Shown one piece after another: positions 1 through 54,486 of a stretch of 64,000 nucleotides of DNA. Position numbers and translations under genes: made by a program. The notes beneath the pieces were generated by a model, which was given only the letters and a program-made list of their open reading frames with translations, had not been told where the DNA came from and did no database searches. Within the stretch, counting starts at the first letter, position 1, and every line of letters begins with the position of its first letter. The DNA is from Fomitopsis serialis. Lineage: Eukaryota > Basidiomycota > Agaricomycetes > Polyporales > Fomitopsidaceae. The DNA lies in the NCBI RefSeq assembly GCF_022376445.1, contig NW_025955007.1, forward strand, positions 124,001 through 188,000, read 5' to 3'.

Positions 1-1037
1 CTGCAGGTGGTCGTAGCGTGAAAGGTTATAGTGTTGCCCTGTAGACATGAAACACTCAGCCAAGTGCCCAGAAAGAGAAAAAAGAAGACTTTCCGACTAT
101 GGTATCAATTGTATCATCACGAACAGGAGAACCGAGACCAATATTGAGCATGACCCTTTCTGCAGATGTGCAACTCGCATCCAGCAAAGTCTGGCTTCTG
201 CTGGCCGCCGAGGATGGATCCAACTCGCTGTCCACCGCAAGTTCTAGCAGCCGCACTCGAGACGCCCGGCTGATCTGCACGAAGAGGTCCTCAACTTCTG
301 GCGCAACCCATTTCACATTGAGCCACTCCAGATTTGCACAATTCAGTGGAAGGGAGGCCGGTGGGACTTGCTGTTTCTGCAAGCAACTGACATGGAAGCA
401 CCAAAAGTCCGTAAGCCGCGGGAGTGCCAAAATGAGGTGGGACAGCAGAGAAACACTGGACAAAATGACGTTGCGGATGGTCAGAAAGCCAATGCAGCTG
501 AACGCAGCTAGGTAGCGGATGTCCTCCATTCGGACCGAGCCGGTGGTCCATTCCGCATCCTCGATGGTGAACCTCCACAACCTTGGAAGCTTGCCCACGA
601 GCATGACGGCAAACACCCCCAGATGCCGGATTGGTTGACGCTTCCCGGGAGAAGCACCCGATATGATGACCTCTTGAATGAACTCACGGAGGCGTGGCAT
701 TTTGCAGAGTGTCTTGTAGAGCGAGAGGACGTCCTTCCGGTCTCGCAGATGGATGCGTCGGCGAAGATGATGCCACGTCAGGTAATACCAGTCTCGGCAT
801 ACGAGTGCGCAGGCACTGAGAGTGACCACGTGCAGCTGTCCCTCGGTAATCCAGCATCCAAAGTCCACCCTCATCGCGACGTGGTCAATGATCCGTCCAC
901 AGACCTCCACAGGAAGCCGCGGGGTCGAAGGGCCCTGAGAGGAGCCTTCGGAGGTTGCGGTCGTCCTGTAGGTTTATGTGTGAACCGTATTACCCGCTTT
1001 CGCACAGTGACACTTACATCGACTCGACTGTGTCCAT
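1..1037 (-). CDS. F-box protein, array copy 1 (3' end off the left edge)
   Basis: Exon 1 is 1018-1037 (ATG, 20 bases, MDTVES), exon 2 is 94-965, and exon 3 begins at 38 and leaves the window. After a short Ser/Thr-rich leader comes an F-box-like start (RLPVEVCGRIIDHVA), then the family block CALVCRDWYYLTWHHL and a leucine-rich region. F-box proteins bind Skp1 and recruit substrates to SCF ubiquitin ligases; that role is inferred from the family, and no substrate is suggested. Intron 1 is standard (GTAAGTG...CTACAG). Intron 2 (39-93, 55 bases) starts with GA (G|GAAAGT) where copy 3 has GTAAGT. If it is not spliced, the protein ends 11 residues later. The start is chosen because an ATG plus 17-base exon is conserved at this place in all six copies. 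Confidence 0.72.
39..93 (-). other. 55-base intron with GA 5' splice site (F-box copy 1)
   Basis: Read on the minus strand, the exon-intron border is ATAGTCG|GAAAGTCTTC and the acceptor is GTCTACAG|GG. The same border in copy 3 is ACAGTCG|GTAAGTCTTC. Length and position are identical to the introns of copies 2, 3 and 5. Nearby GT dinucleotides (4 bases later, or a few bases earlier) would throw exon 3 out of frame. Confidence 0.6.
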
Positions 1038-4000
1038 TCCGCTGAGATGGGATGTGCACTACGGCGACGTGACCACGCAGTGGCACCGATCAAAGTCTCA
1101 AGGATTCGTGCACGTTTGCGATGACAACGTAGATCCACGACGACGAATACACGTTACTGATGACATCGTCTCAGATCGCAATTCTCCAAGAGCAAGCACA
1201 ATGCGGTAACACACTACCTGATTTCCGGTATGTATACTGCTACCAGCTAAGCCAAGATGCGTCGTCCGGGTCCGGTCGTCAATTCGTCAGTCACTCACGA
1301 CCGTTCAGGCTTACGAGGCTACAAGGAAAGCACGACGTCAGTAAGGATATCCATTTTCGAAAGCGAAGTCGTACCTCGCGGGGACTTTCAATGGCTCTTG
1401 GTGCGTGCTGCAAAAGTTCAAAGCTAGACGAAGGGGAGAGCGCAGGGGCAGCGAAGGCAAAGATAGGCGATGTATATATGCATTGATCCAAGCGCTAGCC
1501 CACTGGCGTGTATGAAGTATCAAACACAGACACATGATGTCGAAAACGGTTCTTTGCTTTCAATGGACACCGCGAAGTCGAGGCCTTTCGCGGCCGATGA
1601 CATATTAGCCCGCTATGACCGGGTTACTGTGCAAAGCGGTACTCACAATACTCCCGTGCAGTCCGCGGCGAGTACACGGAAACCACATAGACTAAGAGGA
1701 GACTGCCTGGATGCAGTGCGCCTGATTCTGGTGAGCGCGGGCAAGGCACGCGTGTCCGAACCTTGAGCTTGTTGTATGAACGCTGGTCGATAATCAAGTG
1801 GACCACATAGACGTGCGATCAAGCAGGATTCTGCATAGAGAAAGGGAACACGCGGACCAATGCCGCATCCAATTCAGTACCAGCGAGAGGTATGGCGCAT
1901 CTATCTCTAGATAAGATGTGTTGCACCCAAGTTGCATCAGTTATCATGGCACCTATAGCATCTGCATGTACTTAGAGGAACGTGGAGACCCTCAGGCCTC
2001 ATACCTTGCCGCTTCCGTTCCTCGTCATGCCTTATATGATCTCCTCGGGCGCCGACATGGTCGTAGAACACGCGGCCACTCCACTTGACACTGACGCTGT
2101 CGTGTCTTCGGCGTAATCGCTACGCACGCTCCGCACAGGATCAGCCAGCGCGAAAGAGAGGCAGGCTCCTGTCCGGTCCCAGTCTCCGCGCGTGCCCAGC
2201 TGTGCATATACTGTATACAGGTTGAGCGTGATGCAAACGTTGATCATAGCTACAGCACGGCATGCAGCGTGAAGGTCAGTGTTGGATGGGCGTACATTTC
2301 AGGGTGGACGAGATGTAGTGATTGCGAAACATCAGCCGCGTAGCGTAGCATCTGCATCCAGCGAATACCACCTCAGCGAAGTCATATAACTCGAGCGGCA
2401 CCGGACGACATACCAGTATTGTGCTCATCCGGTACACCGACTAACGTCTATACCAGGTAGACGAGGCGAACGTAGTGCTGTATATGTAATACGCACGTTC
2501 AAATGTCAGACGGGTCCCCAGGCATGCGCGGACATGACATACCCATATCAACCGGATGATACGTTGAAACAAGTTCGGCCGCACTCAGCTTTCGGTAATC
2601 TTCCCGACGAACGCGTGAAGATGTACGAAAACAGCATCCATGCCTCCATGTCGGATTACTCCTCAGGATGTACGAGGCACGGTATGAACCCGTGCAGCCA
2701 GGCATCGCACCAGCACTCAGATCCATCCGCAGCCGACTGATTCGAGGGGTAGGCAAACCACATCCCAGGGCACGACTAAGTGGTGACTAGAGGTGGACTG
2801 GTCTTCGGGTGGACGCCGCACGCTCGCAAGGCAACGGTCCACAGTGAGACCGGGGAGCGAATGGACGAATGGGCACGGCGGGCTGGTCGCACAGAGGAGG
2901 TCGCCTGGTAAAGACTCGGGGAGTGCCTGTCGGCCTGTCTTGGTCATGTTTCCCGTAGGTTTGAGGTCGTGATTGACCAGGAGGCAAACAACTCGCATGT
3001 GGCGCAGACATAGCGAGCCGATGGAAGACAATCTATTTAAGTTGAGGAGAAGATACGGGTACGAGCGCGACCGACTGAGGGGGAGGAGGAGGAGGAGGGT
3101 GGGGGTTGGGTGGGGGCGCTGCGTCGGCCCGCGAATGCCCGACAATTGCCCGGTGCGCGTGCGACGTCGCCTCTCGTCGCCTCCTCGCTCTTCGAGCGAC
3201 GCTGGAGAGCCTGTTCTCAACTCCGCGACCCCGTGCGGCCACACCGATCCATTCTGGGGTGAGGCGTATGTGACTCTGTCTACTAGTAGGACAGCACTGA
3301 CGCGGCCTCGACACCCGCTGTCAACGTTAAGTAGCTGCGGCGTGCGCTCTTCCGCGCCGGTCCTCCTCTACCCAGCCTCTTCCTCTGCCGCTGCCTAGCC
3401 ACGCATGCATATGCCCCTAGCGTCGTCATGTCGTCCGTGAGCACAGCATGGGCACGCCCCACCGCCCGCTCTTGACTGCCACCTACAGCCTCTTCTCTCT
3501 CGTCTTGACGCCCATTTCAGCTCCCCGGGGAACCGTTGCGCGCCCGCTGTCTTGTGCTTTCCCTTTCCTGCTCTCTGCTGCTCGCCTCCCAACGTCCCTC
3601 TCCACTCTGTGACCCTTCCCTGAGCTCTTCCCGTGCCCACCGCCTACACAGGTCGATGCGGATGACCGAGCCAAGTCTGTCAACGCCCACAACTCCTGGT
3701 CTCCACCCTTCCCGCGCTCGCAGGGGTGCGTTCTCACTTCGGTGAGCATATCGCGTGCCTTCAACGAGTCCAGTCGTCTGCGGAAGCGCCGCCCCGACTT
3801 GCTGTCCCTGCCGTACGCCCATATTCGCCGGCCTGGGAGGCTCAGGAACGGTACCAAATGGTGTCTTCGACTCGTATCTGAACCCTCCAAGCGGGACGAC
3901 GCGCGCGGCGATGTTCTCTGCGACGTACTGAAAGGCGTTCGGCATCGACCCCCGCACGCCGCATCCACGGTCTCCAACCCTGTGGCCATCCTGGATGACA

Positions 4001-5829
4001 GCAATGGACATTCCGCGCGAGCCCGTGCAAGTCCGAAGCTGCATGCTGTACTACACGCCGCGTAGCACCGCCCCCGATCTGTGTCAAGTCCCGATGCACT
4101 CCCTCCTCACACTCGTCACTGAACGCCGCCACGCGCAGCTGGACACTCGCACAGAGACGTGCTTTTACAACGACCCGGTGTGTGCTCGCAGTGCAATCCG
4201 ATCAACAGTAACTCCCTCACACGACCTCGTCCTCCACCACCCCTCACAGTGAACGCGCGGTGGTTCGCGGGCTCGTATCATGATTGCGGTAAGCTCTATC
4301 TAAACTGAACTACATGGCTCGTCTCACTAATCGCCAGCCGATGCACAGCTGCTCGTCCGAGCACGTCTCCCCACTGCGGATGTATTACCTCGCAACGGTG
4401 AGGCAGTCGACAGATAAGAAGGGAGGTGAAGAGAATGAGGCAGGCCGGGAGAGGCGAGTATGAAGCAAGCCAGTAGGAACGAGGATGGGTCAGGCTGGGG
4501 AGAGACGTAATGGGAGCGAACAAAAGGTACGGCGATGAAGACGAGGGGCACCGAAGTCAGGCACGCGAAGTCACGGTGCTACGCCTGCGCGTAGACCAGA
4601 CACACGCAACGCAAGGCAACGCGGTGGCGGGCGATGATGTTCCAAGCTTCAAGCTTCAAGCCGGACCCGGAGCAAGGTCGCCATGCCACGCGTGACGCCA
4701 ACCAGGCAACCACGGGACGCGCCGCACCGCTACCAAACATGCAGCGGTGCTCGTCCGGGCACTACGCTGCAGGCTACCACGCGCGCGTAGTCTCCGTAGC
4801 TGACCAAAAAGAGATACTCTCGTTTTTTAACGCGCGCGGCCGTTTCAGATCGCTTACACCACGACGTCACCGCCGACCCGCCTACCGACGTAACCCATCG
4901 CAAGGATATATTCTGACAGGTATATATGCTAGGACACTCTGTCTCGTTCGGATGTACGCCATTGGTGAGCCCTTGCATGGCATCAATCTCATCTCAACGG
5001 GTCTAATGAGTCCAGGGACGCAGGTCTCATTCACTCATCTCGTCGTTGCTCGTACCAAGTGCCGTCGTCACACATGTCAGCTTACCCGTCGAGCGGTGCG
5101 CCCGTTTATCTGTGACACATCAGTTGTGTTCCTCTTCTCGCGGCATGCATTCAACTTAAGTGTATACCGCCGTTTGCTGACATGCGACAGGGTACCAGCC
5201 AGATTCGTCATTCAAAGCAGACCGTCGGTCAGGAGAGTACCTCATTCAGGATCCGCTGTGTCGTCTGTGACAGATCCTGGGGCCGTCAAGTTGGAAAACG
5301 ACGGTCAAGGGAACGCCATGGGTGATTTCCTTGCTCTTTTAGGGTGGAGTAGTCTGCGTGGCGGTACGTCGGAAGGCGTTCAGAAGGCCGGTGGAGGTGC
5401 AGTCCTCATTTCTCATAGTGGCTTCGCGTCCGCAGCACTTCGTCGTCTCCGCACACGACGCGTGGTTCCCGTCGTTTTCCGTACATACAAAACTATCCAT
5501 TCCTTCGGATCGTCTCTGATGACTCACCATCTACACTTCCAGATTGTTGGATGTACGGCACGTTGTTCGCGCATCCAACATACATATCAATTATCGTCTA
5601 CCTAATACTCCTGCGTTCAAGAAATAATCATCATCTGGTGCACGTAAACAAGAGTGAATGTGAATGCCTTCCCCGGCGCTAGCGACATCTCGACCTGCGT
5701 CGCGGTCGCCATATCATTCCATCTCTTGATGTCACAGAACAACTTAGCAAAGCGGCATCCAGGATGACAACTCCATGCTCACGGGACTCTATGCAATGGT
5801 ATGAGCGAGTACGTAGGGTCGCAAGGCTG
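1038..5829. repeat. Intergenic spacer of the F-box array with duplicated blocks
   Basis: No convincing gene was found. The first 1.7 kb carries blocks that recur upstream of the other F-box copies: a TATA-like stretch near 1470, a block near 2040-2290 that resembles 7940-8050, 13960-14300 and 19860-20110, and a block near 2630-2720 that resembles 8520-8630 and 14820-14900. The segment 5240-5590 resembles 10660-10960, so the duplicated unit also extends beyond the gene's 3' side. Between about 3050 and 4700 lies GC- and pyrimidine-rich sequence that I did not recognise in the other spacers. The 324-codon open frame at 4634-5605 is probably chance. Confidence 0.55.
1466..1484 (-). promoter_or_regulatory. 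Putative TATA element of F-box copy 1
   Basis: The stretch GATGTATATATGCAT reads ATGCATATATACATC on the gene's strand and lies about 430 bases upstream of the ATG. The same element with similar flanking sequence is found upstream of copy 3 (13448-13463), and a variant (GCTATATATG) upstream of copy 2 (7864-7874). Conservation across copies supports a function, but no transcript start is visible. Confidence 0.35.
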
Positions 5830-7476
5830 TCAATCCATGTCGCCTAGAGGACCAGGTTCATCATCTTGATCGTCGGGCTGCGCTTCCCCTTCGACATTCG
5901 TCTGCTCGGCTGGCGCGCCGGTACATATCCTATCCATGTCCTGCATCCAGCCGCGGAAATCTTCCATGTCATACATGGTGCTGTGAAGAGCATTTAGCCC
6001 GTTTTCCTCCGTAATTTACCCCAAGTCAATGTACGACGTACACCAGGACACCCCGTTCATGCGAGAGGGGCATCTTCCGCCTCACGAGCTCATCCCATCG
6101 ATCGGACTGTTCCTGGAGTCTTGTATCCGTCCCGATTTGGAGCTCTGCGCAAGACCTCCAGGTGCTGTTCTGATGGTAAAAGCCTAGACAGACACCGCAC
6201 GGCGCAACGCTACTGAAGAAGCGCTTCTCCTGCAGAATGCTGTCCAATCGTCCCAAGACGTTATCCTTCTCCATCGTCGTCAGCATTCGATCCAGGTCAA
6301 TGACTATGTGATCTGTTCGGAGCAGTAACACGACCAACATGGTTTGAAAGTGTCCCGAAGTGATGCGAGACAATATATGCGGGATCCAGGCATACGATGC
6401 ATAGGGATGGTGCAAGTAGATCTCCAGCTTCCATAGGTGTTTGTGACGCGAAAGGTTATAATGTCGTTCTGTATGCATGAAAAGGGATTAGCCAAGTGGC
6501 GAGAGAGGACAAAGAATACTTTCCCACTGTAGCATCAATTGTATGGTTATGTACGAGAGAGCTCGGATTGATCCACAGCTCAAGTTCTCCTGCAGATGCG
6601 GAACTTGCATCCAGCAACGTCTGACTTCTGCTAGCTGCCGAGGATGGATCCAACTCGCCGGCGTTCGCCCCAACATTGAGTTGATGTACTCGAGAAGCAC
6701 GACTGATCCGTACGAACAGGTCTTCGACTGCTGGTGCAACCCATCGCACGTCGATGACCTCCAAATCCGCAGAGTTCAGTGGGAGGCGGGCTGAGAGGAC
6801 TTCCGGTGCCTGCGAGCTACTGACGTTGACACACCGTAGATGCCGAAGCCCCGGGAGTGCCGAAATAAGCTGGGACAGCTGGGAAGCACTCGACAAGATG
6901 ACACCGACGATGTGTAGAGTGTGGATCGCGCTGAAGGCAGCCAGGTAGCTGATGTCTTCCGTCCGTACCGAGCCGATGGTCCATTCCACGTCTCTGATGG
7001 TAATTTGCGACAGGTATGGAACCTTGCCCACGAGCATGGCAGCAAACGTCCCCAGGTGTCGAATCGGATGACGCTCGCCGGACGAAGCACTAGTTATGAT
7101 GACCTCTCCAACCACCTCCGAAGGCGCGGTCTTTTGTGCAGCATCTTGCACAGTGAGAGAACATCTGTCCGGTCTCGCAGATAGACACATTGGTGCAGGT
7201 GATACCACGTCAGGTAGTACCAGTCGCGGCATACAAGCGCGCAGGATGTGAGAGTGGATAGATAGGGCTCTACCTTCAAGAACGTGTAATGGAAACTCAA
7301 TCCCATCGCGACGTGGGTGATGATCCTTTCACAGACGTCCGCAGGAACTTGAAGCCGTGGAATCAGAGTATCCTGCGAGGAGTCCTCGGACGTAACAGCG
7401 GTACTGTGCTCCCCATGCGTGAAACGTGTTATCTGCAGTCGTATAATGGCACTTACGTTGATTCGTCTCTGCCCAT
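5830..7476 (-). CDS. F-box protein, array copy 2 (one single-base frame break)
   Basis: Four exons match copy 3: 7457-7476, 6524-7403, 6042-6468 and 5830-5980. The leader is MGRDES, followed by an F-box (VPADVCERIITHVA), CALVCRDWYYLTWYHL, a leucine-rich middle, a C-terminal exon beginning ERHYNLSRHKHLW, and an acidic tail ending GDMD. The total exon length is one base short of a multiple of three. The break is at about 7114, where AGG-TGG replaces an expected AGGGTGG. It resembles the many one-base losses in other genes here, so the copy may be intact in the organism. Intron 2 (6469-6523, 55 bases) has a GA donor (GTGG|GAAAGT). Intron 3 has GTACGT. SCF adaptor function is inferred only from the F-box. 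Confidence 0.68.
6469..6523 (-). other. 55-base intron with GA 5' splice site (F-box copy 2)
   Basis: The border reads ACAGTGG|GAAAGTATTC and the acceptor ATGCATACAG|AACG. Retention of this intron would replace the conserved 190-residue C-terminal part with about 22 unrelated residues, yet that part is fully open (6042-6468) and similar to copies 3 and 5. Confidence 0.6.
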
Positions 7477-10400
7477 TCCGTGAATCCGTCGAAAAATTGC
7501 AGGGCTCCGTGGGTATGTGCTATAACGCAGACCTTCGATGACGATCACACTGGTGCTAACAACATCGTCTTGAATCGGGTTTCAAGAGCAAGCATATTGC
7601 GAAAAGACGCTACCTGAATTCCGGTACTATGTGAATTGGCCACTAGGCCAGTGGGGACCAAGCTTATTTGTCCCGAGTCGTCAGTTCAACGCGGTCTCAC
7701 ACGATCGTTAGGGTCGGCAACACTGCAAAGAAGAACACGATCTTAGCAGGACCATCCGTAGCAGAAACAAATCCTTACCTCGCAAGACCTCCTGACGACT
7801 TTGAGCTGTGCACTGCAGAAACCTCACGAAGGGGAGAGGGTGAGCACAGCCAAAGGCGACAGGAGCTATATATGTCTTGTTCTCGGCATTAGAGCGACAG
7901 ATGCCACCAACGCCTTCAGTTACATCGGCACATGCATGAACAACTTCCCGCGTGCTCTCAGCTGTGCATATAGCTGGTTTGAGCGTGGCAGAACATCTAT
8001 GATTGACAGGGGTGGCAGTATGAAATGCAAGATGAAGGTCTGCATGACAGCGAAGCCCACCTCAGCAAAGGCATGCCATCCACTGAATGACGCCGAGCGA
8101 CGTACAATGATGTGATCATCTGGTACACCGACTGAACGGGATTTGACATCCAGATTTTAGATAGACGAAGCGGACAAATGAATGACCGCTTACATGCATG
8201 TTGGAAAGTCGAACGGGTTCGTCAGACCTGTAGCGGCTGAAATTCGGTCAACCGTGGCCGCCAGTAGTTACACCACGGGCCCAGCGAGCGTATGAAGGTG
8301 TTACGTAGAAACATCAGTCATGATGCATGAACTACGGCCGTAGGCGGGCGTAAGCCGAGATGCATGAACTAGATTTTAGTGTCGCGCAATGTGGTGGCTC
8401 TCTTGCGATGAAGGTATAACTCATTCAAATGAATCGTGAGCCGGGAGTGCTACGCAGCCAATCTTTACGAAGCATCAGGAATAGCAACGCACAAAGAAAG
8501 GAAAAGAACGTGCCTACGAATGTTAGCTTCCATGCTCTCTGATGCTGGACTACTCTTCAAAATGTCCGAGGCGCAGGATGTCGATGAGCCCGCGAGACTC
8601 TTCGGCATCGCACCAGCAAGGCTGAAACAGTACGCTCACTCATAGACACTGAGGATGAAATCAAACATAGGCCACAGCAAGAGCACTATAAGCCCGAGGT
8701 CCAATAACTGAGATCGAACGACGCACCATTGCTGCTGAGTTATGACGAGTTGATTAACGTTCGGACCTGCTATTTCGTGTTGACGTCGGAAGATGGATCC
8801 GCGAAGAACCTGCGAACCAGACTTCAACAGGTGTTGGCCGAAGAATGGTGAATCTACAATATCATGATGCAGAATTGAGTATTAAGGAGGATTGAAAGAG
8901 GACTTCCGACGATGATCTCACATTCTAGACCGAATTGACGGACCGTGACGAGCGGCAGGCTGCAGGGCAGCCAGATGCAAGCTGTAGTGGTCGCTGGTGT
9001 CTTCGTATGGCATTCAGCAGAAGCGCGTTTGAAGAGAGAGGAGACGGAGACCAGACCAGGGAGCATATGTCAAAACAAAGCACCAGGACAACGAGGACGG
9101 GCGGGTGTCGGGCGCACTGTCGCGGTAGGTCGCAAGTCGTTAAGAGTCTTAGGCTACACTGTAGTCCGGGGATGACGCGGACGGACAAACTCGCACCCTC
9201 TGGATCTGACGTTGTGAGGGTGGATGTGGTTGAAAATCTTGGAGTACATGATACGACCTCCTCCTCCTGCTCGCAACAAGCATTCGCTATGCATACTTGT
9301 ATTTTATCAGTCTCGAAACAAGCCATAATAGTCGAGACTCACCAGGTCGACCGTGGCAGTCCTTCCTCCGCCGTCAGTGGCCTCAAAGATGCAACTTGCG
9401 GCTATACGCAGTTATGGCGAGCGCTGAGACGTGATCACAGGTCGAGGAGAGCAAGATGGAGATCCAGCCAAGATCGACGCGTCCATTGAGTCATGTGCCG
9501 CGTCGCGTCCGATTCGAATTCATTGAGTCTAAGTCTGTCCTCCTCTCATAGCCGTTGTTCTCGACATAACGAGTCTCACAAATCGAGGGATTCACAATCA
9601 TGCCTCGCCATCACAATCGACTTACGCGTCTTTGCTCTTCTTGCGCCCAGTATCGTCGTGCCCATCCGCTGCCTCGTCAATTGATTCTAAGTTACCCTCG
9701 TGAGACTTCGTGTCACGGAGCATGCATTGGACTCAGCGGCCAAGGGCGTAGTAGCATTAGCTGACTGGTGGCGACTCGATAGGGGCGTTCATCATTCCAG
9801 GCAGACTGTTCATCAAGAGACACTGTGACGGAGCGAATCCTGCCTCAGTGAGTCAGTCTGCCGAGCCCTGTTATACCACAACACAGGCTGCGAGTGATCA
9901 ATTCCGCTCCTTTCTCTACGTGCTTATGAATGGCGGTCCGCCGGTTCACACACTTAGTGCGACGAATGCGCTCTGTTTGCGAATCACACTAGCCGAAGGT
10001 GAGTTGATACTCACAGAGGTCGCTGCGTGTCCAGCTCACTCGCGTGGTCAATCCAATCCTCACCTCAGTTGCTGCGAACCCCACTGTGTCTCTGTACGGC
10101 AAGGTCGCGACGTACAACCGCGCCTCTAAAGCCAGCGCATCTAGCTGAGCCGGTCTCCACGGCGTTCGTACTTAGTGTCGGTCCCCGGGATGCACAGCGT
10201 GTAGACTGGGTAGTACGGTGAGCTCACTTTGTCGATACCACACAATGCTGCAATATTTGATGTCCCCGTCGGTGGACACATGCAACCGTATCATGCAATC
10301 ATTCGCTGCCCTGTGATCCTACTCGCACAGGCTGCAGTGCCGTGTTTCAGTCTTCGTGCACATGGGACTCGGAATAGGGCTAATCATTGTTTAGTGCGCA

Positions 10401-11380
10401 TAATTCTTGGCTGTCGTATACTGTGCTGGTGTCGTCGTCAGAGATCGACCCCATTAATGCCCTTGAGGCCGCGTTGCCGTGATGACTGGTTACCAGGTCA
10501 GCCATTTCGAATCGAACGCGAGGCTGTGCAGAACCGCAGAACCCGCAGACTAGACTGCCCAACTCAAGGCGATCCGTTAATCGAGAAGGCCCGAAAAGCG
10601 TGGTACGTTTTACATCTTGACTCGTCCTCCTGGCTGTTTAGATCGCTCTCCGTCACGCAGGACCCAACGTGGCGTTTGCGACCGATCCCGGGTGCTCAAG
10701 ACGGGAGGCTATGTCTGACTCGTAGGTCCCAGTAGACGATGCCTTGTCCAGGAAGTACGGAGCAGCTCACATGGCGGCAACGAAGGCTATCCGGAGGCCA
10801 ATTGAGGTGTGATCCTCGCGCAGTGACATTCGTGTCCCCGCCATCGTGTCGCCTGCGCACACACCGCGTGGTTCTCCCCGCATTTTGTAAATGCAAGATC
10901 ATACCACTCCCTTCGGACAGCCTCTGTCGCCGTCAGTGGGTGCTCTTTATTGACTGATGCACGGTACGTAGCCAGTACCTACCCGTTTATGACTCTACGC
11001 CATGTATTCAGCTGCTCGTAGCAGCCGTGAAGTTGCGTGTCGATCATGGCGAGGCCAATTGACACGCGCAGTGCCCAAATACAATTGGATGCATCTAGTC
11101 TCGACGAAACCCCGTTATATAATGAGCGAATATCTGTCTCGAGCATATAATATTCATGCCGCCGTCCATCCAATTCTTCAGGAGAAATGCTACAGCCTAC
11201 TTATGATCATGAGCAAATGTCAATATGTTCCCTGACACCAACATCTCGACCCGTGTTGCGGTCGCGGGCTCATTGTGTATCTTGAGAACGTGCTCACAGT
11301 TAGCAGAGCGGCATCAGAGGTGATAGTTTGTACTCACGGACTCCACGCGACGCAAGTGAGCATGCATGGTGACAAGCGTG
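7477..11380. repeat. Array spacer between F-box copies 2 and 3
   Basis: No gene could be supported. 7820-8640 contains upstream blocks shared with the spacers of copies 1, 3 and 5, including the TATA variant at 7864-7874. 10660-10960 resembles 5240-5590, and 11230-11380 resembles 5640-5830. These matches show tandem duplication with a spacing of about 5.4-5.5 kb. 8880-10600 is not recognised; short open frames there do not match between units and are not called. Confidence 0.5.
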
Positions 11381-13005
11381 TCAATCCGTGCCGCCTCGAG
11401 GACCCTCAGGCTCGCCGTCTTGACCCTCGGGCTGTGCCTCTCCGTCGGCATTTGGCATGCTACCATGTATCCTTCTCATGTCCTGCCTCCAGTTGAAGAA
11501 TTCTGGGATGGTATATACGGTGCTATAAGGAACACTCAGCTTGTCTTTGCAATTCGACTAAGTCCATAGTACTACATACCTCAATATACCTCGTCCATGC
11601 GAGTGTGGCATCCTCCGCCTAACGAGCTCGTCCCACCGATTGTACAGTTCTCGTAGTGCTGCACTCATCTTGATAAGTTCATCGCCAGATTTCCAAGTGG
11701 TGTTATCATGGTCGAATCCTAGACAGACGCCGCGCGACGCAATAGTACCGGAGAAGCGCTTCTCCTGCAGTATACGGTCCAATTGCGCCAAGACATCATC
11801 CTTCTCCATTGTCGTAATCAGCGCATCCAGATCATCGGCCATGTGGTCGGTCCGAAGCACCAACATAACAGATACAGCCTGGAAGTGATTCGAGGTGATG
11901 TGTGACAGGATATGCGGGATCCAGAGCCACTCTGAAAAGGGGTGGTATAGCCAGATCCCCAACCTCCACAGGTGGTCGTGGTGTGAAAGATTGTAATGTC
12001 GCTCTGTAGGCATGAAACAATCAGCCAAATGGAAAGATAGATATCCGAGAAGACTTACCGACTGTGGTATCAATTGTACCGTCACGAACAGGAGGACTGG
12101 GCAAAATATTGAGCACAACTTCCTCTGTATGTATGGAGCTTGCATCCAGCAGAGTCTGACTTCGGCTGACTACCGAGGATGGACCCAATTCGCCGTGCAC
12201 CCCAATCTTGAGATCGCGCACTCGAGAAGCCCGGCAGATCTGCACGATGAGGTCTTCGACTGCTGGTGCAACCCATTGCACAGCGATCTCCTCTAGATTT
12301 GCGCAACTCAATGGGAGAGAAGGTGGGGAGACTTGCTGTTTCTGCAAGCAGTCGACATCATCGCACCATAGATTCCTAAGCCGCGGGAGCGCTGAAACAA
12401 GGTGGGACAGCTGGGCGACGCTCGACAAGGTCACACTGACAATGTAAAGAGTGTCAATGCAGCTGAACGCAGTCAGGTAACCGATGTCCTCCATGCGGAC
12501 CGAGCCGATGGTCCACTCAGCGTCTTCAATGCTGATCCTCGACAACTTCGGAGCCTTGCCCGCGAGCATAGCGGCAAACGTCCCCAGGTGCCGGATTGGT
12601 TGACGCTTCCCGGGAGAAGCACCTGATATGACGACCTGTTGAACGACCTCACGGAGGCGAGGTTTTGCGTGGAGCGTCTTGGAAAGCAAGAGGACGTCCT
12701 TCCGGTCTCGTAGATGGATGCGTTGACGAAGATGGTACCACGTCAGGTAATACCAGTCTCGGCATACCAGTGCACAGGATGTGAGAGTGGTCAGATATGG
12801 CTCGCCTTTCATAGAGAAATAATAGTAGAGATCCACTCCCGTGGCTATGTGGTCAATGATTCGTTCACAGACCTCCACAGGAAGCCGCAGGATTGAAGCA
12901 TCGTGGGAGGAGTCCTCGGACGTTCCGGCTGTACTGTATTCCACATTTAAACCACGTGAGTCCGAGTCCTGACAGTAACACTTACATCGACTCGTCTCTG
13001 TCCAT
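11381..13005 (-). CDS. F-box protein, array copy 3 (intact, canonical introns)
   Basis: Model: complement of exons 11381-11522, 11580-12003, 12059-12933 and 12986-13005; 1461 bases, 486 residues, no interruption. Exon 1 encodes MDRDES. The F-box follows at about residues 25-70 (LRLPVEVCERIIDHIA, then CALVCRDWYYLTWYHL). Leucine-rich segments fill the middle, and a conserved C-terminal module starts ERHYNLSHHDHLWRL. An acidic Gly/Glu tail ends GGTD. All three introns are GT...AG; intron 2 (12004-12058) is the reference for the GA introns of copies 1, 2 and 5. Likely an SCF ubiquitin-ligase adaptor, judged by the F-box alone. This is the best template for annotating the other copies. Confidence 0.82.
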
Positions 13006-15064
13006 TCCGTGTAATTCAATATGTGCTACAGCGACGTGACCGTGTTGTTGCAGCGATAGAAGTGTCAATACTTCGTGCACGTGTGCGACGACAGCCACGT
13101 AGGTCCTCGACGATGAAGACACGCTCCTAGGCTGTAGTGACATCTTAGATCGCGGCTCATGGAGGGTAAGCAAAATGCGGAAAAAAAAACAAGCTACCTG
13201 TTCCTTGGTATACACTGACTACCAGACAAGCTGATGTGTCGCCCGGGTCGTCGGTTTCGCCAGTCGCTTGCGACCGTTTGGGCTCGCGACGCTTGAGGAA
13301 AACACAATGTCAATAAGAGCCTTATCCGTTGGCAAGAGCGGATTCATACCTTGCAAGAGACTTTCAATGGCTCTTCGTGTGCGCTGCACAGACTCGAAAC
13401 CGGACGAAGAGGAGAGTATAGGGAGTCCAGCGAAGGGAACAATAGGTGATGTATATATGCATCGACACAACGTAGCGCTAGCTCGCCGGCACGTATAGAA
13501 GCGTCGATTTCAGATACAAGATGTCGTAGGCGGGTCTTTGCATTCAGTGGATGCCGTGAAGTCAAGGCTTTCCGAGTCGCAGCCAATGCCAGATAGTCCT
13601 GTATGACCTGAGGGAGGCTGTGTGAAGCAGTAATCGCATTACTAGTATTCAGTCATCGACGAACGGTGCACGAGAAACACATACAGAGGAGCGGGCTCCT
13701 CGGATGCAGCCTCAGGCTGCGAACCTTGAGCTTGTGAAATGAACTTCTATTGATAATCAAGGCGAACGAACCAGTTCTCCATTCAATTCGGTACCAGGGA
13801 CGGGTATCGTGTACCGCGTGTCTAACATGCTAGTGCATAGCATTAGTCCTATACATCAAGAGACGGACTACAACTCGGCGTTATCCGATCGCGAGTTAAC
13901 ACGACACTCCTCCCCTGCATGACAGGCTGTATGCGGCCCCTCATACCTGCCCAATACATATCATAGCCATGAGCCACTTCATCGCCTCGAGTGCCGACAT
14001 AGTCGTGGAACACGCGACCACCCCGCTTGTCATTGCCATGTCCTCTGTGTACTTATCATCATGATCGCAGCACACGCTCTACATAATAAGAAGGACCAGC
14101 GGGCGCGAATGAAAGTGACAGACTCCAACGCCAACGCCATCTGTCTGCGTTGTATGTGCCTGAGTGACCTCCCGCGCTCAATCAGCTGCGAAAAATGCCA
14201 GCTTATGCGTGATGCGAACGATGACTAATAATAACGATACGGAATGCAGCATGACCGTCTGCGATGCCCGAATGTACGTTGCAAGGATGAAGCGCGTGCG
14301 GATGAACGCCCCATAACATTGACATGCCAACGAATTTGACCGCAGCGAAGCCAAGTGCACCTAGTAACGAAACCACATGACATACCGGTAATTTTATGCA
14401 GTACATCGACTTATCGCGGTCTGACAACCCTTATATCAGGTAGACGACGTGGACAAAGAACTACATACACATGTATGTTCAAATTTCAGACGAGTCCACT
14501 AGGCATGTGTGAATGTGACATACCGATCGTGGCTGGATCGTACGTCGAAAGCACGGCCGCACTGACCGCCTTCGGCCATGAAACGGACCTAACACGTGAA
14601 GATGTTGGGTGAGAGGGCGAAAGTACGGCCGTAGGCGAGCGAACGCTAGATCGCGGTGTCTGCGCGACGTCGTGAGTTTCGTACAAAGACGCACAGCTGA
14701 ATTGCGTGGACGCTGAGAGAGAGGGTGTGGTGAGACAGAATTGGTACCCAACCAGTTCTAGGAAGCATCAGCAATGGTGCCGCGCAGAGAGCCTGAGGGC
14801 GAAAACGCACTGGAGAAAGATAGCCTTTATGCTCTCGTCTGTCGGATTACTCTTCAGGATGTACTAAGCACAAGATGAATCAGCGAAAATGTTGATCAGG
14901 CAGCACATCAGTGCATCAGTACCTGTCCTACCGTCCTAGTACAGGTGCATCTGCAGCAGACTATGTCAAATACAATGAGAAGCAGGACAAATATAATCCA
15001 GAAGACTACGTGGTAACAGACCTAAAGCGAAGGAAGAGGCAAACAGGTCTCCGGGTGGATATCG
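13006..15064. repeat. Array spacer upstream of copy 3
   Basis: Contains the upstream blocks of the array: the TATA-like element GATGTATATATGCAT at 13448-13463, a block at 13960-14300 matching 2020-2290, and a block at 14820-14900 matching 2630-2720 and 8520-8630. No gene was recognised. Near 15065 the homology of copy 4's third exon stops abruptly, so a deletion breakpoint probably joins the two units here. Confidence 0.5.
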
Positions 15065-16479
15065 CACACTGTTACAGTGCGGCATCTTCCGCCTCACCAC
15101 CTCGTCCCACCGATCCCACCGCTCTTGGAGTGCTGATTCGGCCCCAATCAACTCTTTCCCGGAGTACCAAGTGCTGCCATCGAGCCGAAAGCCCAAACAG
15201 ACACCATACCGTGACGGCGCACTGGTGCCGGAGAAATCCTCCTCCTGCAGGGCTTCATCTAACCGTGCCAAGACGTTGTCGTCCTCCATCGTCGTGAGCA
15301 GCCCGTCCAGGTCATCGGATAAGTGGCTCCTCCGAAGCAGTAACACGATGAACACAACCCGGAAGTGCGTCGAGGTGATGCGGGACAGTATCTGGGGGAT
15401 CCAGGACCATAGCACGAAGGGATGGAATAGCCAGATCTCCAACCTGGACAAGTGCTCGTGACGCGAAAGGTCGTAGTGCTGTTCTGTGGTGTTCGACGAT
15501 TAGTCAAGCGGAGAGAGAGAGCTGAGAACTAGAAAGACTGACCTAATGTGGTGTCAACGGTCACAGAGCCGACATCAACCGAGAGCGAAACCACTTCTAC
15601 GGATGCCGCGCTTGCTATCAGTACTGTCTGGTTTTCGCCCATTGTCGAGGATCTATCGAAATTTTCGTACACGCCGAGAGTGATATGTTGCAATTGAGAA
15701 GTCTGGATGATCCGCACGAAGAGGTCTTCAACTGCCGCTGCGAACCCATCGCACTTCCAGCATCTCCAGATTTGTGCAGTTCAGTGGAAGCGAGACGACG
15801 TAGGCTTGCTGTTCCTGTGCGCAGTGGACATTCATGCAACAGAATTCCTTCAGCCCCGGGAGGGCTGACACAAGGTGGGATAGCTGGGCGATGCTCGACA
15901 GAATGACATGCGCGAGGTATAGAGTACTGACAGAGCGAAACGCAGCGAGATAACTGAGGTGCTTCATTTGGACCGAGTTGGTGGTCCATTTCGTGCGTGT
16001 GATGCTGATCCTCGTCAAATTCGGGGCCTTGCCCGCGAGCATACCGGCAAACGTTCCCAGATGCTGCATGGACCGATAACGTCCGGATGGGGTGCCTAGG
16101 ATGGAAACTTGTTGGACAACCTCGCGGAGACGCGGTCTTGCGCGAAGCGTCTTGGCGAGCGAGACAACGTCCTTCTGGTCCTGCAGGTGGACGCGTTGGC
16201 GGAGATATTACCACGTCAAATAATACCAGTCTCTGCATACAAGCGCGCAGGACGTGAGTGCAATGAGGTGGGGTTCCCCCGTCACGGACGTGTAAAAGAG
16301 TTGTAATCCCGTCGCTACGTAGTGGATGATTCGTTCACAGACCTCCACAGAAAGCCGTGGACTCGAACGATCTTAAGAGGGGCTCCTAGAGGTAGTAGTA
16401 GTGCTGTGCGTTTCATAATGTATGGTGAGCTGTGGCAACCACAACTTGACAATGAGGCTTACCTTGAATCTCTGATCAT
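15065..16479 (-). pseudogene. F-box array copy 4, pseudogene
   Basis: Exon 1 is 16463-16479 (MIRDS), followed by an intron with GTAAGC; intron 2 is 15484-15542 with GTCAGT; exon 3 starts at 15483 (EQHYDLSRHEHL). Several lesions are present. There is an in-frame TAA just before the F-box, at the Gln position of copy 1. A second TAA lies inside the family block, where TGGTAC has become TGGTAA in the segment after RDWYYLTW. An extra base near 15745 follows RWV. The fourth exon is lost: similarity ends after RRKMPHC near 15065. These are substitutions, an insertion and a deletion, not the simple one-base losses seen elsewhere, so decay is genuine. Confidence 0.8.
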
Positions 16480-17468
16480 TCGGTGGAATTGCGTGCGATT
16501 GTGCAGACCTTCGGTGGCAGAGACGCCACTCCTAGTGCCATCCGTTCAGACTTGCGGTACTTAAAGGACAAGCGAAGAGTGAAATCAAGCACACCTGTGG
16601 TCACTGGCTATGTTACTGGCTACCAAATTAGTTTGGGACAAGATGTTTTGTCTGAGTCGTCGCCGGGGGGCTTGCTGGTGGCTGAAGACCATTAGTGGTT
16701 TCAACGCTGGAACGGAGGCACAACGAGAGCATCCACAAGCCAAAAGGACTAACCTTGGCCGCCGTGAGAACTGTCAATGATTCTCGGGGCTGCAATGTAA
16801 AGACTTGAGGCCGGACGACCTGGAAGAGGAGAGAGCGGTAACAACGAAGGCAATGACAGCCTATCACTGGAGGTAGCAAGGAGACTACGATATGTCCGGT
16901 ATCCATCGCTACTACTTGCGTGGCGCTCATCTGCACTTACATAGAAGCATCGAATGGATACGCACGACGCCAGAAGCAGTGCTTCCGAGATCCGTCAATA
17001 ACTGATGCGAGGACAGACCTCAACGGCCTGAAGGAAGACTCCGGGAAGACTCTTCAGATCGAAACTCGCCGACGCAGCGCACCCAATCGCTTGCAAAAGA
17101 AACTATTGCTAATAACTTAAACTCACCTCCTAGGATGCCAGTTTGCTTGGTTGTAATCCACGCACAGTGAGCCCGCGCGACGCTAAGTGCTGATCGATAA
17201 TCAGGGTGTGCAGTGAATGTGGGATCTGGGCAGAATGCTGTGCATGCGTACAATAGATGGACCGTCAGGTTCAATACAATGCTCGTCTCCATGATGAGTC
17301 GCATGCGGACCCTCATACAGTCATCACGTATGAAGTTTGAAGGTAGTGAGACATACATCTACTTGCGATTAGCATAGCCTGATCAATCGAGGTCCCTACT
17401 AAACGGTATCAGCGCAATGGCACGCACGACAGAGGAATCATATTGACTGTTCTCCGCGCCCCACGGAA
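16480..17468. other. Spacer between copies 4 and 5
   Basis: About 1 kb without a supportable gene. It holds the short upstream region of the copy 4 pseudogene and the downstream flank of copy 5. It is clearly shorter than the other spacers, which fits a deletion within the tandem array. Confidence 0.4.
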
Positions 17469-19123
17469 CTAGCGAGAAGACGTGGCGGAGGGCAAGTTAA
17501 TTTGGGTCAATGGATTCTGGCCATGTAGACCGTCGGGCTGCGCCTCTCCGATGTTGGTTCGTCCTGCTGTCATGCTACTGGTACGCATCCAATACATGTT
17601 CTCCCTCCAAATTTCTACTTCTTGAACAGTATGCGTCGTGCTGCAAAGCATACTCCGAATTAGCCTTCCTCTCCGATTACCTGTAAGCAGCATGACATAC
17701 GTCAAGATACCCCGTCTATTAGAGTGTGGCATCTTCCGCCTGATGAGCTCATCCCACCGATCGCATAGCTGTTGGAACGTCGGACCCGTCCCAACGAGCT
17801 CCTCACCGGAGCGCCAAGTGACACCGTCATGATCGAAGGCTAGACAGATACCACCCGGCGAAATAGTACTGGAGAAGCGGTTCTCCTGCAGTACATCGTC
17901 CAACTGTGTCAAGACGTTGTCCGCCTCCATGGTCATGAGCATTCTATCTAGATCTTGGATTATGTGGTCCGTTCGCAGAGGCAACACGACGGCCATGCCT
18001 CGGAAATGTACCGAAAAGACATGTGCCAGTATATGCGGAACCCAGGGCCATGTCACGAAGGGGTGGTACAGCCGGATTCCCAAGTACCACAGACATTCGT
18101 GTCTTGAAAGGTTATAGTGCCGTTCTATAGACATTGACTAGTCAGCTAAACGAGTCTGAAGAGAAGGAAGAAGACTTTCCGATGGTAGCCTGAATAGTAC
18201 CGTTGTGCAAGGGAGAGTTGGGATGAATGTGGATTCGAAGCTCTTCGACCGATGCAGCACTTGCGTCCAGCACGGCCTGACTTCTACTAGTGATCGAGGA
18301 TTGATTCGACTTGCCGTCTACTCCGAGAGTGAGATAACGCACTCCAGAAGCTTGGCTGATCCGCACGAAGAGGTCCTCCACTGCCGGCGCGACCCATTGC
18401 ACCTCGAGGTCCTCCAACTTCGCACAGTTCAGGGGAAGAGAGATTGCAGAAAACTGCGGGTTCTGTAAGCACTCAACGTTGAAGCACCACAGATGACTGA
18501 GCTCCGAGAGTGCCGAAATGAGATGCGAGAGCTGGGCGATGCTCGACAGGGTGACGGTGTGTATGTATAGGGTGTGAACAGAGCGAAACACGGCTAGGTA
18601 GCCGAAGTCCTCTATCCGGACTGACCCAGTGGTCCAATCCGCGTCTGCGATGGTAATCCTCGACAGCTCTGGTGTCTTGCCCGCAAGCATAGCGGCAAAG
18701 GTCCCCAGGTGCCGAATTGGTTGACGTTTCCCCGGAGAGGCACCCGATATCCAGACCTGTTGGACGACCTTACGAAGGCGTGGCCTCTCGTGAAGGGTCT
18801 TTGACAATAAGAGGACGTCTTGTCGGTCCCGTAGGTGAACGCGTTGATGGAGATAGTACCACGTCAAGTAGTACCAGTCTCGGCAGACAAGGGCACAGGA
18901 GGCGAGGGTAGATAGATGTGGCTCTCCCGTCAAGACCGCATGGCTGAGAGGCAATCCCATTGCTATGTAGTCGATGATCTTTTCACAGACCTCAACAGGA
19001 AGCCACAGAACCGCAGGAAATGGAGAGGAGCCGTCGGAGGTAGTAGCTGCCGTACTAGCTTCGCTATGAACCAGGTGAACCGCATTTTGACGAAGGCACT
19101 TACATCGAGTTAGCTACGCTCAT
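17469..19123 (-). CDS. F-box protein, array copy 5 (open throughout, GA intron)
   Basis: Model: complement of 17469-17640, 17701-18124, 18180-19054 and 19104-19123; 1491 bases, 496 residues, every exon in frame. The leader is MSVANS. The F-box is WLPVEVCEKIIDYIA, followed by CALVCRDWYYLTWYYL, a leucine-rich middle and the C-terminal module ERHYNLSRHECLW. A longer tail ends SATSSR. Introns 1 and 3 are canonical (GTAAGT, GTATGT). Intron 2 (18125-18179) begins with GA (CATCG|GAAAGT), like copies 1 and 2. If GA is not used, translation stops 11 codons into the intron and the C-terminal third is lost. Intactness of that third argues for splicing. Confidence 0.75.
18125..18179 (-). other. 55-base intron with GA 5' splice site (F-box copy 5)
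   Basis: Border ACCATCG|GAAAGTCTTC, acceptor GTCTATAG|AACG. Same length, phase and GAAAGT hexamer as copies 1 and 2. The neighbouring exons are free of stops, and 875 bases of exon 2 match copy 3 in length exactly. Confidence 0.62.
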
Positions 19124-52937: not shown

Positions 52938-54486
52938 CTATGCCTCTGCAGAACGTGTCTGTCCTGCGGTCGTGCTAGGTACTTCCTTCATATCCTTCAT
53001 CCAGTCACGCAGCCCTTGGAAGCTATGCCGCCTGCTGTGAAGTGCATTCAGCTTTCTTCCGCTGATCCACTCAAGCATTTGACCACATGCGTTAATGTAC
53101 CATGAGCCTCCGCATATGGCATCTTCCGCCCGACGAGGTCATCCATCTGCTTTTGATATGTTGGACCCATACTGGAAGTATCTTCTTCCGAGATCCACGA
53201 AGGACTTTGCCACCTGGCGCAATTGTGGAAAAGTGTTTCTCCTATAGCAAAGTGTCTAGTTGTTCCAGGACTCCAATCTCCTCCATTGTTGCCATGATCC
53301 CATCCATGTCATCGGCCACATGCCCTGTCCGAAGCCATAGGACAGCAGCTATTCCTCGGAAGCATTCCGAAGTGACGCGGGATAGCACTTCAAAAATCCA
53401 GGACCATGCTGTGAATGGGTAGGACAGCCATATCTCTAATTTCCGCAGGCACGATGGCGCGAAAGATCGCATGAATCTGTGGATATCTCATCGTTAGTCT
53501 GGCGGCTCTCGATGCCATCGCGAAAACTTGCCTGGTACGGGTAATGTAACATCAACAACACCGTCCTTTGCGGACGACGGAGCGTCGATATGGAGCCGAA
53601 TCACTTCTAGTGACGCTGCACTCGCATCCAGCAAAGTCTGGCATCCATCAAATTGTCGAAGACTGATGTGGCTCGACGTCCACTCCGAGACTGAGGAAGC
53701 GAACTCGAGAAGCACGACTGATCTGCAAGAAGAGGTCTTTAACTGGTGGTGCAACCCATCGCACCTCGAGGTCATCCAGATTTGAACAGCGTAGTGGGAG
53801 GGTGGCCGGAGAGACCAGCTGTGTCTGCACGCATTGACATTCGTGCACCATAGACTTCGTAGTCCTTGGAGTGCGGAAATGAGGCTGGTAAGCTGGGAGA
53901 CGCTCGACAAAGTAGTGGAACTGATGGATAGTTGACGAACGGAGCGAAAGGCGGTCAAGTAGCTGATGCTCTTTGGTTGAACCGAGCCACTAGTCCATTC
54001 AGCGCTTTTGATGGCGATCAGGAACATATTGGGGAGCTTCCCTGCGAGCATGACTGCAAATGTCCCTAGGTGCCCAATTGTCGAACGTTCCCAGGGCGAG
54101 GACCCCGAGACAGTGACCCGTCGGATGGCCTCACGGAGGCGTGGCCTTTCAAGGAGAGTCCTGGAGAGTGATACGACGTCCTTCCGGTGTTGTAAATGAA
54201 TGTGCTGGCGTAGATAGTACCACGTCGAGTAGTACCAGTCCCTGCACAGCGAGCAAGACACGAGTGCAGACAGATGGGATTCTCCCTTGAGGGCACATAG
54301 TTCAGATCTAACCCCGGCATCGCTACGTGGTCGACGATCCGTTCCCAGGCCTCCACTGGAAGCCGTGGTATAGAACTTTCGACATCTTTGTCCGGACTTC
54401 CAGAGGAGGTAGTTGTGCTGTACAGCTCAGACAGTCAGTCATGCTCACCGTAATCTGGTAATTGAACTCACGTCGGGCCGGTCTGT
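52938..54486 (-). pseudogene. Dispersed F-box copy 6, pseudogene
   Basis: Same gene structure as the 0-20 kb array: a short first exon (MKQTGP, GTGAGT donor), F-box LPVEAWERIVDHVA, SLCRDWYYSTWYYL, leucine-rich middle, C-terminal module, and acidic last exon. It has at least four frame breaks: after DLNYV near 54300, near 53840, back again near 53650, and at the start of exon 3 near 53455. The last exon ends early with TAG at 52938-52940 where relatives read Gln. Both later introns have GC donors (CCAG|GCAAGT at 53531 and TTAAC|GCATGT near 53095). The number of lesions is higher than the background of one-base losses in this window, so a pseudogene call is reasonable. Confidence 0.75.

What the first reader, a model, noticed from the sequence alone, without database searches (positions are those of the whole stretch)
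39..18179. The same intron has a GA 5' splice site in three F-box paralogues
Intron 2 (55 bases in copies 1, 2, 3 and 5) starts GTAAGT in copy 3 but GAAAGT in copies 1 (93), 2 (6523) and 5 (18179); copy 4 has GTCAGT (59 bases) and copy 6 GCAAGT. In copies 2 and 5 the exon beyond the intron is open and similar in protein to copy 3 over about 190 residues, and copy 5 is open from start to stop only if this intron is removed exactly at GA. Alternative GT sites nearby break frame. Either a GA donor is used and inherited through gene duplication, or the three copies share a truncated form in which the downstream exon is free to decay but has not yet done so. GA donors are known to work in a few cases (vertebrate FGFR genes); I know of no such report for a duplicated fungal gene array.
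Basis: partly seen in the sequence, partly recalled or inferred. Interest (0 to 1): 0.75.

Follow-up and report, generated by a model that had tools for sequence, protein, structure and literature searches.

The report
GA-start intron across fungal F-box family
In a wood-decay fungus, most examined copies of a large F-box-like gene family carry an intron that begins with GA where nearly all introns begin with GT, and the conserved exon behind it indicates that the cell still cuts this intron out.

Summary
The window lies in a Fomitopsis serialis assembly (66.2 Mb held; species inferred from matching contig lengths). I aligned the same intron in 59 paralogues: 41 begin GA, 15 GC, 2 GT and 1 GG. 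GA is the usual state; the GT of copy 3 is nested among GA copies, so it looks like a reversion. Introns 1 and 3 are GT wherever my pattern found them (52 of 52, 39 of 39).

Over 42 open copies, donor positions +1, +3, +5 and +6, the branch A and the final AG never change. Position +2 changes 7 times, like the intron body (mean 6.2). Exon 3 of GA copies is under moderate purifying selection (omega 0.70; exon 2, 0.65) and open in 31 of 41. In-frame GT alternatives exist but are weak and none is in every copy. One public model of a GA copy equals the GA-AG product exactly; 8 of 11 assigned to GA copies read into the intron and stop.

Best reading: a U2-type GA-AG intron, really spliced, in about 34 distinct copies, perhaps inefficiently. 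No RNA from these copies was seen. GA-AG introns are known but rare; I found no report of one across a gene family.

The parts
39..93 (-). Copy 1, intron 2: GA donor at 93 (TCG|GAAAGT), acceptor CTACAG|GG; exon 3 continues left of the window (C412:123599-124039)
94..973 (-). Copy 1, exon 2 (open frame into the donor)
6026..6468 (-). Copy 2, exon 3 and beyond, open 146 codons after the junction
6469..6523 (-). Copy 2, intron 2: GA donor at 6523 (TGG|GAAAGT); acceptor CAG|AAC, so no AG at +2
6524..7519 (-). Copy 2, exon 2, frameshifted near 7.1 kb
11558..12003 (-). Copy 3, exon 3 and following open frame (intron 3, GTATGT donor, lies inside, by eye)
12004..12058 (-). Copy 3, intron 2: GTAAGT donor; the GT lineage nested among GA copies
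12059..13025 (-). Copy 3, exon 2 open frame
15484..15542 (-). Copy 4 (broken gene), intron 2: GTCAGT, 59 nt
17469..18124 (-). Copy 5, exon 3 and following open frame (217 codons after the junction)
18125..18179 (-). Copy 5, intron 2: GA donor at 18179 (ATCG|GAAAGT, no GT at -4), acceptor TATAG|AAC
18180..19113 (-). Copy 5, exon 2 open frame (weak F-box-like match near its start)
19103..19123 (-). Copy 5, exon 1 (ATG at 19123) up to the first base of intron 1 (GTAAGT) at 19103
53477..53531 (-). Copy 6 (distant, exon 3 broken), intron 2: GCAAGT

Best explanation
Intron 2 of this F-box-like family is a short U2-type intron spliced at a GA donor (mostly TCG|GAAAGT ... CTNAY ... YAG|). Shown here: the donor apart from +2 and +4, the branch A and the 3' AG are held constant; exon 3 is maintained as coding sequence; GA is shared by most examined copies and lies deep in the tree. 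Inferred: the spliceosome removes the intron because the rest of the donor (G-1, G+1, A+3, A+4, G+5, T+6) matches U1 well and the intron is short with a good branch site, so a mismatch at +2 is tolerated in this context. A GC donor may have been the stepping stone, and GA has since changed to GC, to GT in copy 3 and to GG in one copy. Splicing is probably incomplete, so some transcripts read through GGN-AAR and stop in the intron.
For: Donor census, 59 paralogues: 41 GA, 15 GC, 2 GT, 1 GG. Parsimony steps on 42 copies: +1 0, +2 7, +3 0, +4 4, +5 0, +6 0; branch A 0; 3' A and G 0; intron body mean 6.2, none of its 28 columns with 0. Exon 3 omega in 24 GA copies 0.70, lnL -5444.5 against -5457.8 at omega 1; exon 2 0.65. 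Copy 5 against copy 2, both GA: exon 3 dN/dS 0.27. Exon 3 open at least 135 codons in 31 of 41 GA copies; a neutral simulation leaves a mean of 1.2 of 24 tips free of stops, at most 9 in 500 runs. Intron lengths 54-62 nt (mostly 55; open GA copies also 56, 59 and 62) with exon 3 in frame. The GA site matches the donor consensus at least as well as the best in-frame GT alternative in each of 31 open GA copies (one tie). Public model P0008 equals the GA-AG product of C212_43574 over 321 residues. Proteins of relatives on small contigs (P0010, P0021, P0038, P0060, P0061) join at the same place without the intron.
Against: No RNA read from any GA copy was seen; whether P0008 was built from transcripts is unknown. 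Of 11 public models that assigned to GA copies, 8 read through and stop and 2 use the GT at -21; by eye P0022, P0034 and P0062 use other joins too. A GT about 27 codons upstream, in frame, is in 25 of 28 open GA copies when aligned by homology. Ten of 41 GA copies have a broken exon 3. Omega near 0.7 is only moderate constraint, and other GA pairs give exon 3 dN/dS of 0.42 to 0.92, highest for copy 1 and its neighbour. P0036, a relative of the GG copy, has intron 1 removed but intron 2 retained. If unspliced, +2 is the third base of a Gly codon (GGN), so its freedom alone proves nothing about splicing. The donor dinucleotide behind the relatives' joined sequences is unknown, and intronless genes or a gene finder's join cannot be excluded for them.
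Confidence: 0.84

Rival explanations
1. The intron is retained in GA copies; the protein ends a few residues into it (VGKS...stop), and exon 3 is a relic.
For: 8 of the 11 public models that assigned to GA copies are of this form (P0005, P0016, P0023-P0026, P0030, P0032). +2 would be a free third codon position of Gly and +3..+5 a Lys/Arg codon. P0036 shows retention in a relative of the GG copy. Ten of 41 GA copies have a broken exon 3; copy 1's exon 3 dN/dS is 0.92.
Against: Exon 3 is constrained in GA copies taken together. Branch A and 3' AG are invariant. T at +6 never changes although the next base changes 11 times; none of 46 exonic codons with a second base that variable (8 or more steps) has an unchanging first base.
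Confidence: 0.08
2. Splicing uses another donor: a GT 21 nt upstream or one about 81 nt upstream with the same acceptor, or GT at -4 with an AG at +2.
For: GT at -21 is present in 25 of 41 GA copies and used in public models P0006 and P0007. The GT near -81 is in copies 1, 2 and 5 and, aligned by homology, in 25 of 28 open GA copies, by fixed distance, had counted it in 19 of 31. GT at -4 is in 36 of 41.
Against: -21: its G changes 11 times on the tree and GT is absent from 16 of 41 GA copies. Near -81: the site reads mostly GTTCCA, lacks A+3 and G+5, varies at +1 and +2 (3 steps each) and is missing from 3 of 28 (C79_438345, C290_317138, C20_44084); the Ser codon there can explain its conservation; P0008 and the relatives' joined proteins keep the 27 codons that it would remove. 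-4/+2: in frame in 15 of 31; copy 5 has no GT at -4.
Confidence: 0.06
3. Exon 3 is a separate reading frame started at an ATG just before the acceptor (M-P-T-E-R-H).
For: An in-frame ATG is there in 13 of 31 GA copies.
Against: 18 of 31 lack it; proteins of relatives join exons 2 and 3.
Confidence: 0.02

Closest known systems
Trema orientalis SYMRK intron 12 (PMC10668435, passages read)
   Same: GA-AG intron derived from a GC donor; functional; single-base route.
   Different: One gene and local plant populations; here one intron position in about 34 distinct fungal copies, with changes to GC, GT and GG.
GA-AG introns of Ganoderma lingzhi (PMC11590231, passages read)
   Same: Polypore fungus; 35 GA-AG introns in a corrected annotation of about 92,000.
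   Different: Listed in a table of types; no gene family described in the passages seen.
Vertebrate FGFR GA donor (as described in PMC4176328 and PMC7072748, passages)
   Same: Conserved GA-AG U2-type intron.
   Different: Reported to depend on a GT 6 nt upstream; here -6 is C or T in all 42 copies examined, and 5 of 41 GA copies, copy 5 among them, lack even a GT at -4.
GA-AG introns of Eurytemora affinis and Oikopleura dioica (PMC7072748, passages)
   Same: Many GA donors in one species.
   Different: There over the whole genome, with a different motif (A/GATAAGT) and a proposed U1 variant; here seen in one intron of one family, introns 1 and 3 staying GT; the rest of the genome was not surveyed.

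Membership tests
U2-type GA-AG intron | GA at +1/+2 and AG at the 3' end | tested here: met
   GA in 41 of 59 copies, AG in all 59
U2-type GA-AG intron | U2-type rest of donor and branch site (CTRAY) | tested here: met
   +3 A, +5 G, +6 T and branch A invariant in 42 copies; the R of CTRAY is C in 3 of 42
U2-type GA-AG intron | Intron shown to be removed at the GA in RNA | not testable with these tools
   No reads; only the indirect gene model P0008
FGFR-like GA donor | Needs a GT 6 nt upstream | tested here: not met
   -6 is C (33) or T (9) in 42 copies
E. affinis-type GA donors | Genome-wide use, U1 snRNA variant | tested here: inconclusive
   Introns 1 and 3 are GT; genome-wide use not surveyed. 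Three ATACTTTCCTGG sites show no U1 match, but the fungus's own U1 was not identified
F-box protein | F-box domain (Pfam PF12937) | tested here: inconclusive
   16.5-19.6 bits in 5 proteins, cut-off 24.3; two family proteins, P0012 and P0036, carry a precomputed PF12937

The most novel reading that the evidence does not exclude
In this intron the second base of the donor is functionally free: A, C, T and G all occur and change at the rate of the intron body, while +1, +3, +5, +6, the branch A and the 3' AG are frozen. GA then acts as an inherited weak donor that sets a balance between a truncated (about 300 aa) and a full-length (about 480 aa) F-box-like protein across a large, fast-evolving family, and may be older than the split from Rhodofomes roseus.
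Probability: 0.3. Interest if true: 0.82.

Novelty: new variant of a known kind. Interest (0 to 1): 0.72.

Why it matters
U at donor position +2 is close to universal, and GA-AG introns are known mostly as isolated curiosities. A family in which GA is the common, long-lived state, with natural GC, GT and GG versions of the same intron in one genome, is a ready-made set for asking what lets the spliceosome accept a base other than U at +2. It also shows a practical fault: public models of several of these genes end inside the intron, probably because gene finders do not take GA donors.

Tried and rejected
U1 compensation: Rfam U1 in the own genome gave two hits far under the cut-off (21.3 and 16 bits; alignments do not look like U1 genes). 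A U1-like pattern with the loop GATCAYGAAG gave none. ATACTTWCCTGG gave 20 sites, 3 of them with T at U1 position 7 (reversed control pattern 7 sites). Those three show no U1 match; the other 17 were not read. The U1 motifs were recalled, not looked up. So a U1 variant is neither found nor excluded.

Papers: none holds 'Fomitopsis serialis' with 'genome'; searches for GA donors in families or fungi listed no family-wide case. Searches were off target. Supplementary tables of PMC11590231 were not available, so I could not see whether its 35 GA-AG introns include this family.

Donor at another GT, independent exon 3 start: rejected, see rivals. My first count of GT alternatives used fixed distances and understated the GT near -81; searches corrected it, and I moved 0.01 from the best reading to that rival. 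A sequencing error in three copies is made unlikely by 41 GA copies on many contigs. Rows dropped: 59 sites were taken from the 105 matches, the other 46 being distant paralogues or fragments; 17 of 59 copies failed the openness filter for the DNA tree and step counts; four near-identical GA copies were dropped before omega (28 to 24); copy 4 and other copies with short exon 2 frames are not in the protein tree. An F-box motif filter undercounted intact copies (23); by frame length gives 25 of 41. The two trees disagree on C224: rooted protein tree basal, DNA tree next to copy 5.

Full report
WHAT WAS CHECKED. The genes lie on the minus strand. The window is positions 124001-188000 of a 269,847-base contig of a 66.2 Mb assembly. 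Public proteins carrying locus tags of Fomitopsis serialis sit on contigs whose lengths equal those of this assembly (548607, 116572, 305036, 292574, 420011 and others), which names the species by inference.

THE FAMILY. A copy-3 exon 2 query gave 105 matches in the genome and an exon 3 query 77 (the tool calls such counts lower bounds). I took 59 paralogues with both sides of intron 2; the other 46 matches are distant paralogues or fragments. Donors: 39 GAAAGT, 2 GAAGGT, 11 GCAGGT, 3 GCAAGT, 1 GCAAAG, 1 GTAAGT (copy 3), 1 GTCAGT (copy 4), 1 GGAAGT. Some are near-identical pairs on different contigs, perhaps two haplotypes; the 41 GA copies make 34 groups at 97% identity (ungapped, so possibly split too finely), 22 of which hold a copy open through exons 2 and 3. 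Introns 1 and 3 of the same genes are GT in all 52 and 39 copies where my pattern found them, and the pattern left +2 free.

IS IT SPLICED? Four lines say yes. First, splice signals: on a tree of 42 open copies, +1, +3, +5, +6, the branch-point A and the final AG have zero changes, +2 has seven and +4 four, and the 28 intron-body columns average 6.2 with none at zero. Second, exon 3 is kept: omega is 0.70 in 24 GA copies against 0.65 for exon 2, and fixing omega at 1 costs 13.3 log units (kappa was searched on a coarse grid whose edge was reached for one kappa, so this is approximate). Copy 5 against copy 2, both GA, has exon 3 dN/dS 0.27; five other GA pairs give 0.92 (copy 1 and its neighbour), 0.74, 0.65, 0.64 and 0.42, so constraint is uneven. 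Exon 3 is open for at least 135 codons in 31 of 41 GA copies, where a neutral simulation on 24 GA tips leaves 1.2 stop-free on average and at most 9 (those 24 rows were chosen as open, so 31 of 41 is the fair observed count). Third, intron length varies from 54 to 62 nt, not in steps of three, while exon 3 stays in frame in the open copies. Fourth, the GT alternatives are poor. By fixed distance the commonest in-frame pair is in 19 of 31. Aligned by homology, a GT about 27 codons upstream is in 25 of 28 open GA copies, but it reads mostly GTTCCA without A+3 or G+5, is missing from three, and sits in a conserved Ser codon. The G of the -21 GT that two public models use changes 11 times on the tree. 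In each of the 31 copies the GA site matches the donor consensus at least as well as the best alternative, with one tie.

PUBLIC MODELS. P0008 (B0H18DRAFT_1210792) matches the GA-AG product of C212_43574 over 321 residues across the junction. P0001-P0003 match GC-AG products. Of 11 models assigned to GA copies, 8 stop in the intron and P0006 and P0007 use the -21 GT; by eye P0022, P0034 and P0062 use still other joins. That a model was built at a GA suggests transcript support, but I could not see its source. Five proteins of relatives from small contigs run through the junction without the intron: P0010, P0021 and P0038 also lack intron 3 and look like cDNA; P0061 keeps intron 3, and P0060 runs out of the family pattern there. 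P0036, 88% identical to the GG copy, has intron 1 removed and intron 2 retained. The donors of all of these are unknown.

DIRECTION OF CHANGE. Rooted with Daedalea quercina and one Fomitopsis schrenkii protein, two long F. serialis branches (C224 and copy 6) with GCAAGT are basal, copy 5 (GA) branches next to or outside the Rhodofomes roseus clade (supports 34 to 76; labels can shift on re-rooting), copy 3's GT sits inside GA copies (several enclosing nodes at 86 to 99, exact sister unresolved), and the GCAGGT copies also lie among GA copies. The DNA tree instead places C224 beside copy 5, so a GC ancestor is only likely. Two more distant paralogues on C190 have GT at what appears to be the same intron (by eye). 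A GC stage before GA fits the history proposed for Trema SYMRK (PMC10668435, passages).

THE STRONGEST COUNTER-ARGUMENT. Without splicing, +2 is the free third base of a glycine codon and +3..+5 a lysine or arginine codon. That could explain +1 to +5, but not the constant T at +6 (0 of 46 comparable exonic codons behave so), the frozen branch A and 3' AG, or a constrained exon 3. I therefore take splicing at GA as likely (0.84), with some read-through.

MECHANISM. Shown: what is conserved. Inferred: U1 pairs with G-1, G+1, A+3, A+4, G+5 and T+6, and the short intron with its good branch site makes up for +2. A compensating U1 was looked for without success, and the fungus's normal U1 was not recognised either, so this stays open.

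NOVELTY. GA-AG introns are known: 35 of about 92,000 in Ganoderma lingzhi (PMC11590231, passages), FGFR genes, E. affinis and O. dioica (PMC7072748 and PMC4176328, passages). A GA donor as the common state of a multigene family was not among the papers listed; of those I read passages of four.

Noticed in passing
C378:21331, C46:188722, C290:317138, C39:99642, C568:43217 (L007, L053, L075, L030, L028): Five copies (perhaps three lineages) have an intron 2 of 57 nt without in-frame stops, so it can be read as coding; perhaps a response to poor splicing, or chance.
   Followed up: partly
window 6456-7519: Copy 2 has a frameshift in exon 2 near 7.1 kb although its exon 3 is open.
   Followed up: partly
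C412:122088-123271 (L062): A further GA copy with a 62-nt intron 2 lies just left of the window.
   Followed up: yes
protein P0036: A relative 88% identical to the GG-donor copy C41:78361 has intron 1 removed but intron 2 retained, hinting that GG is spliced poorly.
   Followed up: partly
public F. serialis gene models: Several members, GC copies included (P0011, P0012, P0014, P0015), are annotated as proteins of about 300 aa that end in intron 2; likely mis-annotation.
   Followed up: partly
C346/C440, C379/C51, C69/C212, C255/C248, C46/C39, C46/C633, C568/C39 contig pairs: Near-identical copies on separate contigs suggest that both haplotypes are partly in the assembly.
   Followed up: no
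Rhodofomes roseus proteins P0048, P0049, P0050 and P0013, P0017, P0018, P0020: Two annotations of R. roseus treat this intron differently: one reads through (STVGKLYT...), the other joins exons (STVERH...), so its donor there may also not be a plain GT.
   Followed up: partly
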